This document shows, in pieces, positions 37,883-46,209 of a stretch of DNA of 64,000 nt (position 1 is the first letter of the stretch; every line of letters starts with the position of its first letter). Under the pieces are notes generated by a model. That model saw nothing but the letters and a program-made list of their open reading frames with translations. It was not told the origin of the DNA and did not search any database. The position numbers and the translations under genes were made by a program. Origin of the DNA: Algoriphagus lutimaris (GTDB lineage Bacteria; Bacteroidota; Bacteroidia; Cytophagales; Cyclobacteriaceae); NCBI RefSeq assembly GCF_017051705.1, contig NZ_JAFIDJ010000002.1, positions 1,012,384 to 1,076,383 of the forward strand, in the 5' to 3' direction.

Positions 37883-38746
37883 GTGGCGTTAGATCAATAT
37901 CAAGATGAGGAAGAAGAAGGAATGTCCTTTTTGGACCATTTGGAAGCCCTTCGTTGGCACCTTCTTCGTTCTGTTTCTGCAATTTTAATACTTTCTGTTG
38001 CTGCATTCGTAGCCAAAAGCTTTGTCTTTGGAGTCGTCATCTTGGGACCATCCAAGGTAGACTTCGTGACTTATCGATGGCTATGTAACGTCAGTGACTA
38101 TTTCGGTATCACTGCTCTTTGTATCGACGAATTGCCATTTACGATTCAGAGTAGGCAGATGACCGGGCAGTTTACCATGCACATGACATCGAGTTTTGTG
38201 GTAGGATTTATTGCAGCCTTTCCTTTTGTATTCTGGGAAATATGGAGATTTATCAGTCCGGGATTATATGACCAGGAGAGAAATGCTGCTCGAGGAGCCG
38301 TATTCTTCGTCAGTTTACTGTTCTTCTTGGGAGCGGCCTTTGGATACTATATCCTATCACCACTTTCCATCAACTTCTTGTCAAACTACCAGCTGGATCC
38401 TTCAATCCTGAATGAGTTTGATATCACCTCCTACATTTCTACCCTCACGATGTTGGTCTTGGCTTCTGCCATCATGTTCCAACTTCCAGTAGTGGTGTAT
38501 TTCTTGGCCATGTCAGGTTTGGTGTCTTCCGCCATGCTAAAAGCCTATAGAAGACATGCCATTGTAGTGATCTTGGTGCTTTCTGCGATTATTACGCCTC
38601 CGGATGTGATTTCTCAGGTCTTGATTGCCATGCCGATCTTGGTGTTGTATGAGGCCGGAATTCAGATTGCGAAACGTCTGGAAAAGAAAAGAGCGATCAA
38701 AGAAGCGGAGGAAGAAGCAAGAGATGCAATGGGAAATAGGGATTGA
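37883..38746 (+). CDS. tatC: Sec-independent translocase subunit TatC
   Basis: TatC is the signal-peptide receptor of the twin-arginine pathway for folded proteins. The 287-aa protein starts with GTG. The cytosolic N-terminus MSFLDHLEALRWHLLRS holds the conserved Glu, and six helices follow, with GLYDQERNAARGAVFFVSLL and the YYILSPLSINFLSNYQ segment. A charged tail (KRLEKKRAIKEAEEEARDAM) closes it. Compared with E. coli TatC there is an enlarged first periplasmic loop (about residues 55-90) containing two Cys. No tatA lies in the window. Confidence 0.94.
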   Translation: MALDQYQDEEEEGMSFLDHLEALRWHLLRSVSAILILSVAAFVAKSFVFGVVILGPSKVDFVTYRWLCNVSDYFGITALCIDELPFTIQSRQMTGQFTMHMTSSFVVGFIAAFPFVFWEIWRFISPGLYDQERNAARGAVFFVSLLFFLGAAFGYYILSPLSINFLSNYQLDPSILNEFDITSYISTLTMLVLASAIMFQLPVVVYFLAMSGLVSSAMLKAYRRHAIVVILVLSAIITPPDVISQVLIAMPILVLYEAGIQIAKRLEKKRAIKEAEEEARDAMGNRD

Positions 38747-38789
38747 GGATGTAGGATTTGAGATGTATGATGTAAGATTTTGTTTTATT

Positions 38790-38884
38790 GTCATTTCAAA
38801 CAAAGTGAGAAATCTCTAATCATTCGTTAATCGAGTCATTTCGACCTCACTTTCTTTGTCATTTCGACCGAAGGGAGAAATCTC
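38790..38884. repeat. Cluster of three GTCATTTCGAC-type intergenic repeats
   Basis: Three related units lie side by side: GTCATTTCAAACAAAGTGAG (38790-38809, continuing AAATCTC), GTCATTTCGACCTCACT (38835-38851) and GTCATTTCGACCGAAGGGAG (38858-38877, continuing AAATCTC). The middle one is cut short. The palindromic GAGAAATCTC ends suggest hairpins. They fill the tatC-rpiB gap and are related in style to the REP-like element at 54906-54984. Confidence 0.65.
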
Positions 38885-38930
38885 AGAATCATCAAACTAC
38901 TCAGAATAGCAATTAAAAAAACATAAAATC

Positions 38931-39368
38931 ATGGCAAAGAAGATAGCAATAGGAGGAGATCATGCAGGTTTTGAATACAAAGCCCAACTAGTCGCCAAAT
39001 TAGAGTCCTTGGGATATGAAGTGAAAGACTTTGGTCCATTCTCTACGGCTTCCGTGGATTATCCGGACTATGTTCATCCGTTGAGTGATGCGATCGAAGC
39101 AGGAGAGTATGAACTCGGGATCGTGATCTGTGGAAGTGGAAATGGGGTGGCGATCACTGCCAACAAGCACCAGGGAATCCGTGCGGCCCTTTGCTGGAAT
39201 GAGGAATTGGCAGCTTTGGCTAGACAACATAACAATGCCAATGTACTTGCTTTGCCAGCAAGATTTATTTCCTACGAACTAGCTGAGAAATTGGCCAAGA
39301 TCTTCTTGACTACCGAGTTTGAAGGAGGAAGACATCAGAATCGAGTGAATAAGATTGCTTGTAGCTAA
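38931..39368 (+). CDS. rpiB: Ribose-5-phosphate isomerase B
   Basis: RpiB interconverts ribose-5-phosphate and ribulose-5-phosphate in the pentose phosphate pathway. The 145-aa protein has GGDHAGFEYK at the start, the catalytic Cys in VICGSGNGVAITANK, IRAALCW and HNNANVLALPARF. The sequence is complete, ending GGRHQNRVNKIACS. The last 15 codons (39324-39368) recur in diverged form at 43300-43344, so this gene's 3' end looks like one border of an inserted segment. A terminator follows 21 bp downstream. Confidence 0.95.
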   Translation: MAKKIAIGGDHAGFEYKAQLVAKLESLGYEVKDFGPFSTASVDYPDYVHPLSDAIEAGEYELGIVICGSGNGVAITANKHQGIRAALCWNEELAALARQHNNANVLALPARFISYELAEKLAKIFLTTEFEGGRHQNRVNKIACS

Positions 39369-39389
39369 TGCGATTAAATAATAGAGAAC

Positions 39390-39426
39390 AAGCCCAAACT
39401 TGAGTATTCAGGTTTGGGCTTTTTTG
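39390..39426 (+). terminator. Rho-independent terminator after rpiB
   Basis: AAGCCCAAACTTGA (39390-39403) pairs with TCAGGTTTGGGCTT (39408-39421), with one G-U pair and a 4-nt loop, followed by TTTTT. If the island hypothesis is right, this terminator came in with the inserted DNA, and the original one is that at 43365-43400. Confidence 0.9.
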
Positions 39427-39558
39427 TAAGGTTTAGTATAGGGTTTTTGGTGGTATCGAAGTACTTTCCTGTAAGGGAAACCAAAGCTGGTTAGGGAGCG
39501 AAAACCTTGATATCAGAAGTTCCCTGCCATTAGCTATATATATTGTTACCAAAAAAAG

Positions 39559-40509
39559 TTATTGTTTTTTCACTCCAAATTTATTGTTGACCAAATCAAT
39601 GACGATCACATTGTCTATGAAAAAGTCATTTCCTACTAGCCCGTCAATCCCAACCTGATTCAAGGTTTCTACAATTTTTTGCTCTTGGGTAAAAAGAATA
39701 TTCTTATTTGCACTTAGCTTCATTTCCCCCAATTCAATAGGAGATTCAATTATTGATTTTTCAAATGTGGCCAATGTCCCCCAACTATTCAACTTTACGG
39801 TGTCTGTAGGAGTTGAATTACTTTTTACTTTATCAAAGAAAGCTTTATCAATTGTAGTTATCGCAGATATGGACGCTCCTGTATCATAAATGAAGTCATA
39901 GCTTTGTCCATCAACTGCTAAAGAAATGAATATTTTGCCGTATTTATATTCAAGTGGTGCTAGACGATAGTCTGATTTGTCGAATTTGCTCTCATCGTTA
40001 AGAATGGTAATTGTAGTATTTGGAAAATCAATGAGAAGAATTTTGTTTTCCACCTCATTAGCTCCAATTGACCCAATTACCGAAAGAGAATCGTAGCTTT
40101 TTTGGTCTCCATAATCTTTGTAGATGAATAAGGTATCGACCGAAGAACTGTAATTACCAATACTGGTGTTTACTCTCAGTATTTCATAGTCACTTCTGGC
40201 AACAATCTTTCTTTTTAAATGGGGATGTGCTGAAAGAATTGTCTGAAGGGGGTTCTCATAAATTGCTGAGACATTTAAACCTAAATCTAACTGCATTTTA
40301 AATTCTCTATCAATTGAATCTATATAAACTGGTAAGAACATCGCGCCGTGCTCATACTTGATACCATCAAGTTCAAAGCCTTGCCATTCGAATTTAATTT
40401 CATTTTGCAGCAATTCATCAGTGTTCGATCTTTCAGTTTTTTGATCGCCTGAGTTGCAAGAGGACAGGGCAAGTGTAAGAATGATGCAGATTTTTAGGAA
40501 TGAGTTCAT
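39559..40509 (-). CDS. Retropepsin-like aspartic protease lipoprotein
   Basis: The 316-aa protein has a lipoprotein signal ending in LSSC (Cys18) and two aspartyl-protease-like lobes, with DLG at residues 75-77 and the canonical DTGAS at 209-213 in FIYDTGASISAIT. The second lobe repeats the beta-hairpin pattern (VIGSIGANEV; GIDGLVGNDFF). In the first lobe DLG replaces DTG, so catalysis by the paired Asp may be weakened or altered. It is the first of two leftward genes in the rpiB-bounded island and is preceded by repeat copy A. Confidence 0.8.
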   Translation of the reverse strand: MNSFLKICIILTLALSSCNSGDQKTERSNTDELLQNEIKFEWQGFELDGIKYEHGAMFLPVYIDSIDREFKMQLDLGLNVSAIYENPLQTILSAHPHLKRKIVARSDYEILRVNTSIGNYSSSVDTLFIYKDYGDQKSYDSLSVIGSIGANEVENKILLIDFPNTTITILNDESKFDKSDYRLAPLEYKYGKIFISLAVDGQSYDFIYDTGASISAITTIDKAFFDKVKSNSTPTDTVKLNSWGTLATFEKSIIESPIELGEMKLSANKNILFTQEQKIVETLNQVGIDGLVGNDFFIDNVIVIDLVNNKFGVKKQ

Positions 40510-40554
40510 CTTCTATGATGGTCTGTTTTTGAGATCAATTGTAATTTTTGCTAA

Positions 40555-40810
40555 CACTTGTATCAACCCAAGTCCGACTATTCTATTGCGTATATAGCTA
40601 TATTGTCCACAGGGGAATTTGGTGTTGTGGAAACCAAATTAAGAATTTCGGTTCTGACTTCCTTAGCGATATTGAATAGTTCGAAATTTATTTACCTTCT
40701 TTATTAAAAAAGTGCCTCAGATCGTGCTGAAGGAATTGCAAATTCCTAATAATAAAAAAGCGTAGATGCATCCGTTAGGTATGGTGGTTTATCCTTAGGG
40801 GGGAAATATT
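40555..40810. repeat. Island repeat, copy A (about 250 bp)
   Basis: This AT-rich segment matches 43057-43305 along its whole length. Shared blocks include 27 identical bases at 40668-40694 (43169-43195), AAATTCCTAATAAT at 40740-40753 (43241-43254), and GCGTAGATGCA at 40760-40770 (43261-43271). It ends in TTAGGGGGGAA like copy B but lacks the rpiB-like tail. The start codon of the leftward retropepsin gene lies about 45 bp away, so it may carry that gene's promoter. Confidence 0.8.
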
Positions 40811-40933
40811 TCGAACGATCAAAATTATTTCCCCATTTAAATAAACGATTAGTTTAAGCTTTCACTAACTTATTTAGAAAATTGTGATTAGCAATACGAG
40901 TTTGTTGCATTAGTCTTAAATGTTGAACATCTC

Positions 40934-43024
40934 TTACAATTTTATAAAATTCAAATAGAGGTCATTTAAATCTTCCTGTGTTAGTGTATGTATTTGACCC
41001 TGATTATTGAGCCAGGCAATAATTTGTTCAGTGTTCAGTACTAAAGCTCTTAGACTATCAAATTCTTTTTTAAAAGGCGCTTGATTACTTAATATTCTTG
41101 AAATTTTATTTCTATCGGCAGAATCTACCATCATGATTGGAGCTCCTTTTGCCAGGCTTTCTAAGGTGTCATTGATTTCCAATTGACGGTCATAATTCGA
41201 TATAAATTCTGTAAATTTCAAATCCCATATTTTAACATAGTCTAAACTTGCTGTAACTATTTTATTGCCATCAGATGAAAAAGAAATACTTGAAAACTTT
41301 TCAAACCTAGAAGGTCTTAAGACAGCAATAGTATCTCCCGTTTCAGATTTCCGAAGAATTGCATCTCCCATAATGCTTCTTGTTGCGATGATCTTGTCGT
41401 CAGGCGAAAATTTAGCTTCACGGAAAAAATCCAAACTTTTTCCTTCATGAAAATTGGTAATAATTTCCCCTGTATTTACATCCCAAATTCTGCTTAAATG
41501 TGGTTTAATATATGGACTAAAATAAAAAACCTTATTCCCGTCAGTTGAGAAAAAGAGTTCTGATGAAAAGTGAATGTATTCTTTTAAATTGCTAATTTGC
41601 TTTTGGCTTTCTCTATCCCAAATGCTCACATTGTATTCAGAATTTCCAATCGGCTTGAAAGTCATGATTTTTGCCCCATCAGGAGATAATCTGCAACTGG
41701 CGCAATCCAAATCATCAATCAATTCACCTGTTTTAACATCCCATATTCCAGCAGCCCTTTTTCCACTATTTGTAAGATAATTGACTATTATTTTAGTTCC
41801 GTCAGGGGAAAAGTTTGCGTTATAAATAGACACATCATTCTCAAGTGGTTTAAAAATTTGGACGTTGCCTGGAATACCTGTTTTAGCATCATATATTATA
41901 GGAGGGCCTTTAGCATAAATTATCATTACTTTTTCTCCATCTGGTGAGAATTCTATTCCCTGGTTTAAATTGTATTTAGTATCTACCGCTGATAACTCAA
42001 TCAAATTATCTGATTTATAATCGTATATAACACCTGGTATTACAGAATTATCTTTGTTAAAGGCAATTGCTATTTTATTTTCATCTGGAGAGATTGCGGC
42101 GCTTGTAAGTTGCACTGGCAGCGGGGTTCCATTTATTTTATTAGAAGAATACTTAAACCTATTCCCATTAATTTTTTTTTCATAAAAGAGCAGTTTTTTC
42201 TCTACGGCATTTGACCAAATATCCTCTAAGGTCTTTTCAACCGAATAATATTTCTCTTGAGATAGACGGTCATTTGATGGATGTTTTTTGTAACCATATT
42301 CCGCCAAACGAATAGCTATTGTTGGATCATCATTTGTTAAATCTTTTGCAATTACTGACACCAATAGGCTTTGGGCTTTATTATTTTCAAAAATTGCTTT
42401 TACTGCCAGTATTGTTGCAGAAATTAAAAGCAAACTAAGAACTATGAAAACTCCATTTCTTAACCTAATCATTTTGCGATGAATAGACACTTCCTCACTG
42501 GCCAGGTCATTGGGAGCTTTACCATGTAACTTGGCAGCTAGTTTTAAAATCTCTTTTTTAAAAATGGGATTATTCAACGAAAGGTCTTGCTCCGTTTTAG
42601 ATTGGCGCAAATCAATAAAAAAGGGTTCATCCGTGAATTTGTCATCCAGAGTAGGTGGCAATGAATTTTTATCTGGATTTAGAAAACAATTATTTTGATT
42701 ATCCCATTCCATTTTGCCCGCAGTTAAGGCAATTAATATTTTGTCAATCGATTTATGTTCCAGCCAGTATTCAACTTCCTTGTTAACCCAAGGCGAATTT
42801 TCAGATATTGGAGATGCCAATAAAATAAGGTATTCTGATTGGTCCAATGCTTTAGTTATATTCCCCCATAGATGTGGGGAGGCATCCAGGCTTGATTCAT
42901 CCCGAAAGATTTCCAAGTTTCGTTTTCTTAACCATGGTTTTGCAAATTTTTGCAATGCATTTTGGAGTGCAGGAGCAAAATTGTCATCTGAGGAATGTGA
43001 ATATGAAATAAATGCGTTATACAT
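40934..43024 (-). CDS. TIR-transmembrane-beta-propeller protein
   Basis: The 696-aa protein starts with a TIR domain (1-130): box 1 NAFISYSH, FRDESSL, and the helix SPWVNKEVEYWL, whose Glu83 aligns with the catalytic Glu of NAD-cleaving TIR enzymes. A basic stretch and one transmembrane helix (191-212) follow, then a short helical AIRLAEYGYKKHPS segment. Next comes a WD40/TolB-like propeller (about 290-600) with repeated FSPDGEKV, FSPDGTKI, LSPDGAKI, FSSDGNKI and a KIWDL end. The likely design is an inner-membrane sensor with cytosolic TIR output. No associated effector or toxin is seen. Confidence 0.85.
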   Translation of the reverse strand: MYNAFISYSHSSDDNFAPALQNALQKFAKPWLRKRNLEIFRDESSLDASPHLWGNITKALDQSEYLILLASPISENSPWVNKEVEYWLEHKSIDKILIALTAGKMEWDNQNNCFLNPDKNSLPPTLDDKFTDEPFFIDLRQSKTEQDLSLNNPIFKKEILKLAAKLHGKAPNDLASEEVSIHRKMIRLRNGVFIVLSLLLISATILAVKAIFENNKAQSLLVSVIAKDLTNDDPTIAIRLAEYGYKKHPSNDRLSQEKYYSVEKTLEDIWSNAVEKKLLFYEKKINGNRFKYSSNKINGTPLPVQLTSAAISPDENKIAIAFNKDNSVIPGVIYDYKSDNLIELSAVDTKYNLNQGIEFSPDGEKVMIIYAKGPPIIYDAKTGIPGNVQIFKPLENDVSIYNANFSPDGTKIIVNYLTNSGKRAAGIWDVKTGELIDDLDCASCRLSPDGAKIMTFKPIGNSEYNVSIWDRESQKQISNLKEYIHFSSELFFSTDGNKVFYFSPYIKPHLSRIWDVNTGEIITNFHEGKSLDFFREAKFSPDDKIIATRSIMGDAILRKSETGDTIAVLRPSRFEKFSSISFSSDGNKIVTASLDYVKIWDLKFTEFISNYDRQLEINDTLESLAKGAPIMMVDSADRNKISRILSNQAPFKKEFDSLRALVLNTEQIIAWLNNQGQIHTLTQEDLNDLYLNFIKL

Positions 43025-43056
43025 GGAGATCTATTATTTTTCAGCTTGAAGGTTAA

Positions 43057-43305
43057 AATTGTATTAACCCAATTCCGACTATTCCATTGCCTATATATCT
43101 GCCTAGCCCACAGGGTTATTCGGTCTTGCGTAAACCAAATTAACAATTTCGATTATGACTTCCTTGGCGATATTGAATAGTTCGAAATTTATTTATCCAC
43201 TTTATTGGTAAAGTAATTCCGATCGCTCTAAGGGAATTTCAAATTCCTAATAATTGAAAAGCGTAGATGCACCCGATAGTTATCGTGGTCTACGCTTAGG
43301 GGGGA
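43057..43305. repeat. Island repeat, copy B, with perfect hairpin
   Basis: This is the partner of the 40555-40810 repeat and lies about 30 bp upstream of the TIR gene start. Near its end AAGCGTAGA (43259-43267) and CGATA (43274-43278) are inverted as TATCG (43281-43285) and TCTACGCTT (43289-43297). Copy A has the left arm but a decayed right arm. Copy B runs straight into the rpiB-like tail at 43300. Confidence 0.8.
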
Positions 43306-43344
43306 AGGCACCAAACCAGAGTGAATAAAATTGCTTGTAGCTAA
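43300..43344 (+). pseudogene. Detached second copy of the rpiB 3' end
   Basis: Forty-five bases encode GGRHQTRVNKIACS plus stop, matching the rpiB C-terminus GGRHQNRVNKIACS. Of seven changed codons six are synonymous (for example AGA/AGG, CAT/CAC, CGA/AGA), so the sequence diverged while still coding. The codon just before it is TAG and no start is present. It is best read as the far border of an insertion at the 3' end of rpiB, or as a relic of a second rpiB gene. Confidence 0.8.
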
Positions 43345-43364
43345 TTCAGGAGGTTTCATCAATC

Positions 43365-43400
43365 AAAAGCCCATCTTGTTAGAACAAGATGGGCTTTTTT
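43365..43400 (+). terminator. Rho-independent terminator after the rpiB-like tail
   Basis: AAAAGCCCATCTTGTT (43365-43380) is perfectly inverted as AACAAGATGGGCTTTT (43383-43398) with only AG between, so the inner pairs must open to form the loop; a T run follows. It lies 20 bp after the rpiB-like TAA, the spacing seen for the real rpiB terminator. Confidence 0.88.
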
Positions 43401-43411
43401 GTAACATTTGT

Positions 43412-43430
43412 ATATACGCATTGCGTATAT
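43412..43430. repeat. Palindrome ATATACGCA-T-TGCGTATAT
   Basis: Nine-base arms meet around a single T. The half ATTGCGTATAT also occurs in island repeat copy A (40585-40595), and a variant (ATTGCCTATAT) is in copy B. It may be a recombinase or regulator site near the island border. Confidence 0.5.
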
Positions 43431-43496
43431 TTCCATTATAGTTAGAATAGGAGCTTGGGTTTATAAAGCGTTGAAAATCAGATATTAATAAATCGT

Positions 43497-43534
43497 AACC
43501 GACAACAAACGACAACAATCATTTGTTGTCGGTT
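43497..43534. repeat. 13-bp perfect inverted repeat with nested direct repeat
   Basis: AACCGACAACAAA (43497-43509) is inverted as TTTGTTGTCGGTT (43522-43534). CGACAACAA occurs twice in tandem within the left arm and loop. No T run follows, so an operator or element end is as likely as a terminator. Confidence 0.55.
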
Positions 43535-44521
43535 AAAAGGCTGGATTTAAGCCCAATCCCACTAACTCTTGAAGTACGGAAACTAAAAGTTGAGTTCCTA
43601 TACCCAATACTGGGTATTTTTTACTTTTTTGAGCTGTTTTCAGTATTACCTCCACCTATTTTTGGGTTTAGTTATAGAGTTTTTTTGTTCGACCACTTCA
43701 GGGTCGGTGGTTGAAGTCTAGAGGTTTCATACCATGGGTTTCACCCAAGGTTAAAAATGGTTTGACTCTTACAGGGTTATGAAGATGTGGGTATCGAAAG
43801 CTTAATTCAGCGCATTAACTTTATTTTGAACCCCTATAAATTTGTCGGGACGCTACGGAAAACAATATACTTTTTTGCTTTAGACAAGAGTGGGTTTGTC
43901 TTAAAGTTTTCAATCAATCCTTTTTATGTGATATAAATCTTTTGCTTGTTTTTGATTTCTCCGTCCTTTTTCCTGTAGGTGAAAAAGGACCAAAAAACCC
44001 ACCGCTGTCCATTTTTGGGTTAAAATCAATTTCCTCCCCACACGTCGGCAAACTCCTCAATTTTGCATTAAATCTTGCCAAATTATGATGTTTAGGATAG
44101 CAAAATTTTCGTCAAACAAGCCTCCTAATTAACACCCTCACAATTGATTTCTTAACCCCCAAAATTGGAAGGCGGGTTCAACCTAAAACCTTTAAATATC
44201 ATATGAAATTTCAATTGGACGATTTGCTTTGAATTGGCCTGAAAATGTCCGAAGGCATTTTCAGGCCAATTCAGGCAAAAGACTCCCGATACCTATCGTG
44301 GAGGGGGACTTTTGCCTGCATGCCGGTAGGCAGGGTCTTTCAAAAGTGCCAAACATAGAAAAACCTGTCATTCACTTTTTCTATGTTTGAAGAATATTTA
44401 AGACTCATTGTGAAAAAACTATTTATTAGATAGCCTCATGTCTTTGGAAAGTGAATGGGCTTGCAGAAGGTGCCACCAAAAAACAATAACTCTTAGGAGG
44501 GGACTTCAAGGTTAAAACCAC
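43535..44521. other. Gene-free region of stacked intergenic repeats
   Basis: I see no convincing gene here. The stretch holds a self-complementary ATACCCAATACTGGGTATTT motif (43600-43619) and an imperfect ACCATGGGTTTCACCCAAGGT hairpin near 43732-43752. It also holds GTCCTTTTTC/GAAAAAGGAC arms (43963-43972, 43981-43990) and the long hairpin at 44231-44272. The only frame over 60 codons (43523-43714) lacks signal, motif or context. Confidence 0.6.
44231..44407. repeat. Dispersed repeat family 1, copy 1, with 17-bp perfect hairpin
   Basis: GAATTGGCCTGAAAATG (44231-44247) and CATTTTCAGGCCAATTC (44256-44272) form a perfect 17-bp stem with loop TCCGAAGG. The next 130 bp (AATTCAGGCAAAAGACT, CTTTCAAAAGTG, TATGTTTGAAGAATATT) recur at 55104-55236, where the stem is decayed but the loop is kept. 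Copy 1 also carries a CCCGATACCTATCGTGG insert. Confidence 0.75.
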
Positions 44522-44552
44522 AAAACCCATCCTGGATCACCAAATGGGTTTT
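44522..44552 (-). terminator. Hairpin downstream of the S8 peptidase gene
   Basis: AAAACCCAT (44522-44530) is inverted as ATGGGTTTT (44544-44552). It lies 23 bp past the stop of the leftward peptidase gene, with Ts on the minus-strand 3' side (TTTTGTGGTTTT). Confidence 0.6.
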
Positions 44553-44574
44553 GATGGTTAGCTTGGTTTTGGCT

Positions 44575-46209
44575 TTACAGACTTGCTTTCCCGTTGGCCA
44601 CTTGATTGGCCAAGATCAGGGCGTTGTATAGATTGGCGATTTTACCGGAAGAAGAAATCTCTGAGAAGGGTTTCTCTTCTCCTTCGGGTCCACCTACCAT
44701 TACTTCCATATCCAGCGCAACACCAGACTCCAGGATTATCTTCTTCACCTGAGCGGCAGTAAGGCTAGGATAATACGATCGGATCATGGCAGCCAATCCC
44801 GCTACTGCAGGAGCGGCCATGGAGGTGCCGTCCTGAAATTCATAGGCATCATTGGGCATGGTCGATAAGATCTCTTGTCCAGGGGCAAAGATATCCACAT
44901 ATTTCTTTCCATAGTTGGAGAATACAGCGACCATTTCCGATCCCAGCATAGGAGTCAAGGCACCTACCGTCAGATAATTATCGGAAAAGTCTCCAGTTCC
45001 TCCATTTGGATGGTCATTCGGGAAACTTGGGTTCTCTGGATCATCCAAATCCATTCCATCATTTCCAGCAGCATGTACAAACAGCACATCTTTGGAAGCG
45101 GCATAGTTTAAGGCATCATATACCCATTCGGAATTAGGGGAGAATCCCTTTCCAAAACTTGCATTGATGACCTTGGCTCCATTATCTGCTGCATAGCGAA
45201 TTGCCAATGCGATGTCCTTATCGTATTCATCTCCATTAGGCACCGCCCGGATAGACATGATTTTGACACGATTCGCGACGCCGTCCACGCCCTTTTTATT
45301 GTTTCGGGTAGCAGCGATGATTCCTGCCACATGCGAACCGTGACTTTCCTCTGTATCTCTGATGTTTGGATCCCCATTGCCATAATCCTGATCGGAATAA
45401 TCATAAGGATCATCTCCTACGGGAGTTCGACCGTTGAAATCCACATTCAGATGATAGTTTACCTGCGTCTCATAATAGTTGATTCCTGCTTGAAGGTCTT
45501 TGATCGCATCAGGTACATTTTCTCCCATGCTGATCACCTGCATCAACATCCCTACGGTTCTTTCTTCCTGTACATTCTTAGGCTCATATCCTTGTAGATC
45601 GGCTAAGGAATAGTATTCTTTCCCCAAAGCAGTCTTGATATTCTTATCGGCTAAGGTCACCAACGCTTCGATCTGCTTTAGCTGAGGAAGGGCTGCTCTG
45701 GCTTCAGGAAGCTTTTCATTGATCTTTTCTTGGGCAGCTGCTTGGTAGGCCTCATCTCCGATTTTCAACCGGACGATTCTCGCCATTTCCATTTGTTCAT
45801 TGAAGGATTCTCCAAGGAAGTTGTATCCATGGATGTCGTCAATGTATCCATTTCCATCATTATCGATGCCGTCTCCCGGCTTCTCTCCCGGATTGATCCA
45901 AAGAACTTCTTGGATATCCTCATGATCCAAGTCAATGCCTGAGTCAATCACGGCCACGATGACTTCCTCTCCTTTCTTCTTTTTCAGGAGTTCCGCATAG
46001 GCACGGTCTACGCTCATGCCCGGGATCGTATCTTTCTGTAAATCTAGATGTCCCCAATGTCTGGATTCCTGATCGGTCAGTTCGGCTACTTTGGGGCTGG
46101 TGTTGGTATAGCTGATCGGCGGGGCGGTGATTAAGGAGGAGGAAGTACATCCTACGACCATCAGGCCTACTCCCAACCCGGCCAACAGCTGGATTTTGCT
46201 TCTAATCAT
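44575..46209 (-). CDS. Subtilisin-like S8 peptidase lipoprotein
   Basis: I start it at the ATG at 46209 (544 aa) because MIRSKIQLLAGLGVGLMVVGC is then a proper lipoprotein signal (Cys21). The catalytic triad is Asp89 (VAVIDSGIDLDH), His290 (SHGSHVAG) and Ser463 (GTSMAAP). The gap of about 200 residues between Asp and His is far longer than in subtilisin. It contains a DGIDNDGNGYIDDIHG loop and a helical insert (about 135-250). It is probably an outer-membrane-anchored protease. It precedes no operon partner; atoE lies upstream on the same strand. Confidence 0.92.
   Translation of the reverse strand: MIRSKIQLLAGLGVGLMVVGCTSSSLITAPPISYTNTSPKVAELTDQESRHWGHLDLQKDTIPGMSVDRAYAELLKKKKGEEVIVAVIDSGIDLDHEDIQEVLWINPGEKPGDGIDNDGNGYIDDIHGYNFLGESFNEQMEMARIVRLKIGDEAYQAAAQEKINEKLPEARAALPQLKQIEALVTLADKNIKTALGKEYYSLADLQGYEPKNVQEERTVGMLMQVISMGENVPDAIKDLQAGINYYETQVNYHLNVDFNGRTPVGDDPYDYSDQDYGNGDPNIRDTEESHGSHVAGIIAATRNNKKGVDGVANRVKIMSIRAVPNGDEYDKDIALAIRYAADNGAKVINASFGKGFSPNSEWVYDALNYAASKDVLFVHAAGNDGMDLDDPENPSFPNDHPNGGTGDFSDNYLTVGALTPMLGSEMVAVFSNYGKKYVDIFAPGQEILSTMPNDAYEFQDGTSMAAPAVAGLAAMIRSYYPSLTAAQVKKIILESGVALDMEVMVGGPEGEEKPFSEISSSGKIANLYNALILANQVANGKASL

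What the first reader, a model, noticed from the sequence alone, without database searches (positions are those of the whole stretch)
39324..43344. Four-kilobase island bounded by two copies of the rpiB 3' end
The last 15 codons of rpiB (39324-39368) recur at 43300-43344 as a detached tail encoding GGRHQTRVNKIACS and a stop. By eye 38 of 46 bases agree, and six of seven changed codons are synonymous, so the second copy diverged while part of a functional gene. Each tail is followed at about 20 bp by its own terminator. Two leftward accessory genes lie between. This is the layout left by site-specific integration at a gene's 3' end, where the element brings a replacement tail. No integrase is visible, so the element may be reduced, non-autonomous, or moved by homologous recombination.
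Basis: partly seen in the sequence, partly recalled or inferred. Interest (0 to 1): 0.8.

Follow-up and report, generated by a model that had tools for sequence, protein, structure and literature searches.

The report
Gene island that swapped rpiB's tail
Behind the housekeeping gene rpiB this Algoriphagus-like bacterium carries a 4-kb block of accessory genes whose arrival gave rpiB a new 3' end and pushed its old end to the far side, and similar events recur at this gene in related species.

Summary
The last 45 nt of rpiB recur 3,976 bp downstream (38/46 identical; six of seven codon changes silent), each copy with its own terminator, around two leftward genes (TIR-WD40 and retropepsin-like). 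Related repeats recur through a ~39-kb gene array elsewhere in the genome; they are copies of the 3' flank of the amidohydrolase gene at the array's start.

Tail replacement is supported: rpiB's body is like its nearest relative G013, its last ~45 nt are like A. locisalis, and the switch lies within ~9 nt of where the displaced tail begins. In G022 rpiB is followed directly by a displaced-type tail and terminator. Detached rpiB tails occur in 5 of 62 Algoriphagus loci examined, with differing cargo, and at no other gene tested there.

A dedicated integrase is not shown: none lies nearby, displaced tails start at varying points (-47 to -186), and the window's junction has ~7 nt of microhomology. 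Import anchored in rpiB with an illegitimate far end is favoured over e14/icd-like integration. In passing: 18 of 18 readable IntI-related recombinases in the genus are followed by a CGTTR site.

The parts
38931..39368 (+). rpiB (145 aa), intact; body G013-like, last ~45 nt A. locisalis-like
   Evidence: PF02502 E 1.5e-59; mosaic sites
39324..39368 (+). proximal (replacement) tail of rpiB
   Evidence: D2 repeat; 2/45 mismatches to G021 and G014, 6/45 to nearest relative G013
39387..39424 (+). terminator A, same sequence type as behind A. locisalis rpiB
   Evidence: inverted repeat I9; match to L016
39559..40509 (-). cargo gene 2: 316 aa, retropepsin-like aspartyl protease (lipoprotein-like start by eye)
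   Evidence: PF13650 E 1e-4, 23.2 bits against a cut-off of 24.3
40558..40805 (-). repeat R2: copy of the 3' flank of the amidohydrolase gene at C8:653605-657234, plus a palindromic repeat; upstream of cargo gene 2, followed by core TTGATACAAGTGTTAGC
   Evidence: D1
40934..43024 (-). cargo gene 1: 696 aa, TIR domain, WD40 propeller
   Evidence: PF13676 TIR_2 5e-9, ThsB_TIR 4e-8, several WD40 models; weak PADLOC TIR hits
43059..43306 (-). repeat R1, second copy, upstream of cargo gene 1; its outer end (CTTAGGGGGGAA) abuts the detached tail
   Evidence: D1
43300..43344 (+). detached (displaced) rpiB tail, GGRHQTRVNKIACS*; nearest allele G022 (4/45)
43365..43398 (+). terminator B, same type as behind rpiB in G013 and G022
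   Evidence: inverted repeat I7
43402..43430 (-). palindrome + core TATACAAATGTTAC next to terminator B; in G013 a different 4.3-kb gene block starts exactly here

Best explanation
Foreign DNA carrying the 3' end of another Algoriphagus-type rpiB, its terminator and two accessory genes was inserted into the 3' end of this genome's rpiB. The join lies about 45-50 nt before the stop codon, so rpiB stayed intact with a foreign tail, and its old tail with its own terminator was displaced 4 kb. Shown by sequence: the two tails are different functional alleles, the body-to-tail switch, the empty arrangement in relatives, and repeated events at this gene. Inferred: the cargo came from a cassette-like array of the type behind the amidohydrolase gene, because its spacers R1 and R2 are copies of that gene's 3' flank. 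Inferred: the DNA entered by homology-anchored import (pairing in rpiB at one end, illegitimate joining at a ~7-nt GGGGGAA microhomology at the other) rather than by a dedicated integrase.
For: Allele switch between -52 and -43, displaced tail from -45/-47; own vs G021 76/378 mismatches in the body but 3/60 in the tail, the lowest of 166 pairs at similar body distance. Displaced-type tail and terminator directly behind rpiB in G013 and G022. Recurrence: 5 of 62 loci hold a detached rpiB tail, with cargo HTH + Fic, mobile mystery proteins A and B (G043, G039), a 275-aa gene without family match (G006), the subtilase (G003). Control: among 828 ORFs in those loci tail-only copies were found at 4 rpiB genes and at no other gene (taking 62 of the 828 as rpiB p = 3e-5, or 4e-4 with G043/G039 counted once; G003's degenerate copy was not picked up by that test). 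Same pattern at other genes: a mobile-mystery pair behind a phytanoyl-CoA-dioxygenase gene (PF05721) of G007 with a 115-nt in-frame tail copy; one array spacer holding 119 nt of the amidohydrolase coding tail. Displaced tails start at -47, -52, -53, -86, about -186. Microhomology: R2 ends CTTAGGGGGGAA, the displaced tail starts GGGGGAAGG.
Against: In the window the left switch and the start of the displaced tail coincide within ~9 nt, which a single-point reciprocal exchange predicts and two independent joins do not. Proximal tails of own, G043 and G039 are more alike than their bodies predict (28 of 23,426 triples as extreme; with G006 10 of 20,000 random quadruples), as if elements carried a common tail. 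In G043, G039 and G006 sequence after the stop is shared by both copies of the same genome, so a foreign origin of the proximal tail is not shown there. For G006 the proximal tail fits its nearest relative (G007, 4/60). The own displaced tail is 11/45 from G013, more than expected of a native sister allele. No donor was found.
Confidence: 0.48

Rival explanations
1. Site-specific integration at the rpiB 3' end by a tyrosine recombinase acting in trans or since lost. The element brings a replacement tail in its attachment site, as e14 does in icd.
For: Switch and displaced-tail start coincide in the window; G043 (-52) and G006 (-53) start close by; proximal tails cluster; rpiB is hit repeatedly. 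Precedent icd/e14/icdC: 165-bp copy, 12 nt exchanges (passage, PMC11148124).
Against: No recombinase seen in the islands read (own; G043, G039, G006); the five PF00589 places of the own genome lie elsewhere. Displaced tails also start at -86 and about -186. The mobile-mystery cargo ends compared show no convincing shared motif next to the tail.
Confidence: 0.28
2. The whole island with both tails was imported ready-made from an island-bearing relative by ordinary two-sided homologous recombination; the displacement itself happened in another lineage.
For: Own displaced tail is nearer to G022 (4/45) than to sister G013 (11/45).
Against: The DNA right of the displaced tail matches G013 (87% over 267 nt; subtilase 92%), so no foreign right border is seen. 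Searches of 73 genus genomes with R1 and with 43300-44000 showed no genome with this island; the cargo genes themselves were not searched for.
Confidence: 0.12
3. An integron-like recombinase of the genus (IntI-related, without the IntI-specific insert) moved the cargo: R1, R2 and the site at 43402-43430 are its attachment sites and rpiB is a secondary location.
For: The core TATACAARYGTTR, exact or with 1-2 mismatches, occurs at array spacers, at R2, beside terminator B and behind the recombinase of G009; G013 has a block inserted exactly at the core beside rpiB; all 18 readable recombinases are followed by CGTT[AG], with nearly always unrelated genes behind.
Against: The tail/R1 junction is not at the core; the nine R units folded do not look like attC (z -2.0 to +1.5); no IntI over cut-off in 73 genomes. 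It explains the cassettes, not the duplicated tail.
Confidence: 0.09
4. Plain tandem duplication of rpiB followed by decay and later insertions.
For: G003 has a longer degenerate rpiB 3' copy (186 nt coding plus 74 nt) 2 kb downstream.
Against: In the window nothing rpiB-like lies left of -47, and the differences are mostly silent, as between two functional alleles.
Confidence: 0.03

Closest known systems
Prophage e14 in icd of E. coli K-12 with the displaced tail icdC
   Same: Intact gene with a replacement 3' end, few and mostly silent differences, old tail in frame on the far side of the insert (passage in PMC11148124)
   Different: e14 is a prophage with its own putative integrase gene intE; here 4 kb, no integrase, start points vary among genomes, target is rpiB
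Homology-facilitated illegitimate recombination building arrays of displaced 3' modules (Vibrio T6SS immunity arrays; Rhs C-terminal displacement)
   Same: Conserved stretch as anchor, new module beside it, displaced older 3' parts kept in order (passages in PMC5361080; homology-assisted illegitimate recombination also in passages of PMC2884548)
   Different: There the displaced parts are effector domains and immunity genes; here they are the tail and 3' flank of housekeeping genes unrelated to the cargo, with cargo on the opposite strand at rpiB
Integron cassette arrays without integrase (CALIN)
   Same: Array of genes mostly of one orientation separated by related repeats, no integrase beside them (CALIN definition, passage in PMC8618304)
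   Different: Spacers are copies of one neighbour gene's 3' flank, do not fold as attC, and no IntI passes its cut-off in the 73 genus genomes searched

Membership tests
Integrative element at a gene 3' end (e14/icd type) | Gene keeps an intact frame with an element-derived tail; the original tail is displaced | tested here: met
Integrative element at a gene 3' end (e14/icd type) | Empty site in relatives: gene followed directly by the displaced-type tail and its terminator | tested here: met
   G022: tail+terminator 79%, subtilase gene 93 nt after the stop, but the window's 43402-43668 flank is not there; G013: tail+terminator 82%, its own block lying 3' of the terminator and then that flank
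Integrative element at a gene 3' end (e14/icd type) | Integrase gene in the element | tested here: not met
   no PF00589 match near C8:1051-1056 kb; two ORFs of other families
Integrative element at a gene 3' end (e14/icd type) | Fixed crossover position in independent insertions | tested here: inconclusive
   -47, -52, -53 but also -86 and about -186
Homology-facilitated illegitimate recombination product | One border in homology, the other at short microhomology | tested here: inconclusive
   ~7-nt GGGGGAA at the R1/tail join, inferred from R2; donor unknown
Integron / CALIN | IntI with its specific insert in the genome | tested here: not met
   TIGR02249: 0 of 73 genomes over the cut-off; the own match covers 4-184 and 239-315 of the model. 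That the skipped part is the IntI-specific insert is recalled.
Integron / CALIN | attC sites folding as imperfect hairpins between cassettes | tested here: not met
   nine R units folded: z -2.0 to +1.5, no stem closing both ends
Tandem gene duplication | Second copy extends through the whole gene or decays gradually | tested here: not met
   abrupt border at -47 in the window

The most novel reading that the evidence does not exclude
Algoriphagus carries an integron-like gene-capture system built on an IntI-related recombinase that lacks the IntI-specific insert. Directly behind its stop codon lies a CGTT[AG] site, often preceded by a hairpin, at which nearly every genome examined holds a different gene. 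The site beside rpiB (43402-43430) and the array behind the amidohydrolase are its satellite sites. Captured genes then spread between strains by recombination in the neighbouring housekeeping gene, which leaves behind trails of displaced gene tails.
Probability: 0.3. Interest if true: 0.8.

Novelty: new variant of a known kind. Interest (0 to 1): 0.52.

Why it matters
It shows how small accessory (partly defence-like) gene blocks can settle behind a housekeeping gene without any recombinase of their own and without breaking it, and it leaves a readable scar: a displaced tail of another allele. Such scars give a tractable signature (detached in-frame gene tails) for finding integrase-free insertions in any genome. 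If the integron-like reading holds, it would add a recombinase family and site type that searches built on IntI and attC models would miss.

Tried and rejected
attC/integron reading of the R repeats: rejected as far as structure goes, since the nine R units folded score like shuffles (z -2.0 to +1.5), and no IntI passes its cut-off in 73 genus genomes.

Rfam on 38000-45000: only matches below the gathering score.

A claim that displaced tails start within ~10 nt of each other looked strong from BLAST borders and from shuffles. It was withdrawn when a genus profile showed G039's copy reaching -86 with chance extension of at most 10 nt in 99% of 2,000 trials. The P values printed used a wrong register for G006 and are not used; G006 was rescored (-53).

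My notes speak of a 13.7-kb island behind rpiB in G022. Searches show that is wrong: a subtilase gene lies directly behind; the second match there is another copy of the core site. My note speaks of a hairpin behind 18/18 recombinases; by the test it is 9 of 18.

A rise of R-copy divergence with distance from the anchor gene is not consistent (79% still at 27 kb). Of 30 mobile-mystery loci read, only L232 showed a repeat recognised as a gene-tail copy; L223, L226 and L235 have long repeats that are non-coding or unassigned, L244 was too short to test and L234 only partly testable. In the 80 rpiB loci (10 titled Algoriphagus, the rest other Bacteroidota) no detached tail was seen (four had under 300 nt downstream and could not be tested). 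Literature: no paper seen describes rpiB as an insertion target or recombinase platforms of this kind in Bacteroidota, in the searches (listings) and passages; the library is partial.
Full report
OBSERVATION. The window lies at C8:1012384-1076383 of an Algoriphagus-type genome (relatives named). rpiB is 38931-39368. Its last 45 nt recur at 43300-43344 (38/46 identical over 46 nt), followed by about 20 nt and a second terminator. Seven codons differ, six silently. The two leftward genes are a TIR-WD40 protein (40934-43024) and a retropepsin-like protein (39559-40509, just under the Pfam cut-off). The island also holds a 248-nt direct repeat (82%), one copy upstream of each cargo gene.

EMPTY SITE. 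In G013, the closest genome found (subtilase 92%), rpiB is followed by the displaced-type 3' sequence and terminator (82% over 105 nt). A different 4.3-kb block follows, and then the window's right flank (87% over 267 nt). In G022 rpiB is followed by the same type of tail and terminator (79%), and a subtilase gene ends 93 nt after the rpiB stop; the window's 43402-43668 flank is not at that place there. So the displaced tail, terminator B and the right flank look like the native side, and the proximal tail with terminator A is the odd one.

ALLELE SWITCH. At sites where G013 and A. locisalis (G021; identified by its contig length) differ, own rpiB agrees upstream of -60 with G013 at 50, G021 at 10 and neither at 8 sites, but with G013 at 3 and G021 at 6 in the last 60 nt (p = 0.004; cut chosen afterwards). 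The switch is between -52 and -43; two of the eight later sites (-25, -2) still agree with G013. Own and G021 differ at 76/378 in the body but 3/60 in the tail; no other of 166 pairs at similar body distance is that low. The displaced tail is nearest to G022 (4/45). Against a simple picture: it is 11/45 from G013.

RECURRENCE. Of 73 genus genomes 71 have rpiB; 62 loci were examined, with 2 to 18 kb downstream, 50 of them at least 15 kb; 9 were not fetched. Five hold a second rpiB tail: the window (4.0 kb), G043 and G039 (1.3 kb; HTH + Fic pair, mobile mystery proteins A and B), G006 (0.9 kb; one 275-aa gene without family match) and G003 (2 kb; a degenerate 186-nt copy behind the subtilase). 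The cargo genes are leftward. G043 and G039 probably share one event. As a control, 828 ORFs of at least 120 aa in the same loci were tested the same way: five hits, four at rpiB and one ordinary paralogue pair. In the 80 loci, mostly outside the genus, no detached tail was found (four not testable). Proximal tails of the window, G043 and G039 are more alike than their bodies predict (28 of 23,426 triples).

BORDERS. Scored against a genus profile, displaced tails reach -47 (window), -52 (G043), -86 (G039) and -53 (G006), and about -186 in G003. Chance extension beyond a true border is at most 10 nt in 99% of trials. At the window's right border the repeat R1 (outer end CTTAGGGGGG) meets GGGGGAAGG of rpiB; the sister repeat R2 ends CTTAGGGGGGAA, so about 7 nt are shared.

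THE REPEATS. R1 and R2 have relatives in an array at C8:657-696 kb. They are copies of the terminator and ~150 nt behind the gene at the array's start, an amidohydrolase/TolB-like ORF at C8:653605-657234 (for its domains). Besides the original I count eight copies in the array; one (C8:672138-672341) also contains the last ~119 coding nt of that gene, now with a stop. At eight array places with a core like TATACAAGTGTT an ORF starts 16-64 nt behind it; two of the eight are paralogues of each other, the others look different by eye. The island cargo therefore looks like two cassettes from such an array, and tail copying is not special to rpiB. Elsewhere, a mobile-mystery pair stands behind a phytanoyl-CoA-dioxygenase gene in G007 with a 115-nt in-frame copy of that gene's tail.

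MECHANISM. Two readings remain. (a) DNA import anchored in the shared housekeeping gene, with an illegitimate far end: fits varying borders, microhomology, absence of recombinase, and the same pattern at several genes; such a model has been proposed for Vibrio immunity arrays (passages of PMC5361080, which also say the process is rare). (b) Site-specific exchange as for e14/icd (passage of PMC11148124): fits the coincidence of switch and displaced-tail start in the window and the clustering of proximal tails. I put (a) at about 0.48 and (b) at 0.28.

INTEGRON-LIKE LEAD. The core also lies at 43402-43430 beside terminator B, and G013's block begins exactly there. In 3.09 Mb of fetched sequence (overlaps counted) TATACAA[AG][TC]GTT[AG] has 11 distinct hits, 0 for the reversed pattern; one is directly behind an IntI-related recombinase of G009. 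Of 20 recombinase regions fetched, two were dropped because the script did not find such a recombinase end (G032, G001). All other 18 have CGTT[AG] within 170 nt of the stop (14.6% of random 150-nt windows do), and 9 of 18 also have a perfect hairpin arm of at least 7 nt (3% of random windows). The ORF taken as first behind the site (longest on that strand starting within 700 nt) is unrelated in all but one weakly similar pair, while the recombinases are 52-71% identical to the own one. The own one scores 219.6 bits with TIGR02249, below its cut-off of 265, and skips model positions 185-238, where from memory the IntI-specific insert lies. The MSB 2021 survey notes that this insertion is not fully conserved in its integron-like subgroup (passage of PMC8138268), and integrons proper have been reported in Bacteroidota (passage of PMC8618304). 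Whether this recombinase acts on the rpiB site is untested.

Noticed in passing
L247:622-2037 (G000:C1:1668621-1670036) and 17 homologues in L248-L265: IntI-related tyrosine recombinases (own one: Phage_integrase + SAM_4, weak HARP-like match) each followed within 170 nt by a CGTT[AG] site and nearly always an unrelated gene (hsdM in the own genome): an integron-like platform.
   Followed up: partly
G000:C8:657254-696364 (L009-L011): A ~39-kb array of genes mostly in one orientation (several DUF6090-type; that name is recalled) with eight further copies of the 3' flank of the gene at its start.
   Followed up: partly
L101:9758-10787 (G013, behind rpiB): The different block at the same place in G013 holds a 2TM effector and an mCpol-like protein (PADLOC); from memory this pair resembles the Panoptes defence system.
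   Followed up: no
L232 (G007:C53): Mobile-mystery A/B pair behind a phytanoyl-CoA-dioxygenase gene with a 115-nt in-frame tail copy (83%).
   Followed up: partly
L165 (G003), about 1.96-2.25 kb after rpiB: Degenerate copy of the last 186 nt of rpiB plus terminator on the far side of the subtilase gene, so the subtilase itself may have arrived by the same process there.
   Followed up: partly
43240-43306, 40740-40805 and G000:C1:1183844-1184618: Palindromic repeat AAGCGTAGATGCAYCCG...CTACGCTTAGGGGG (part of R1/R2) is also dispersed in this and other Algoriphagus genomes, REP-like.
   Followed up: no
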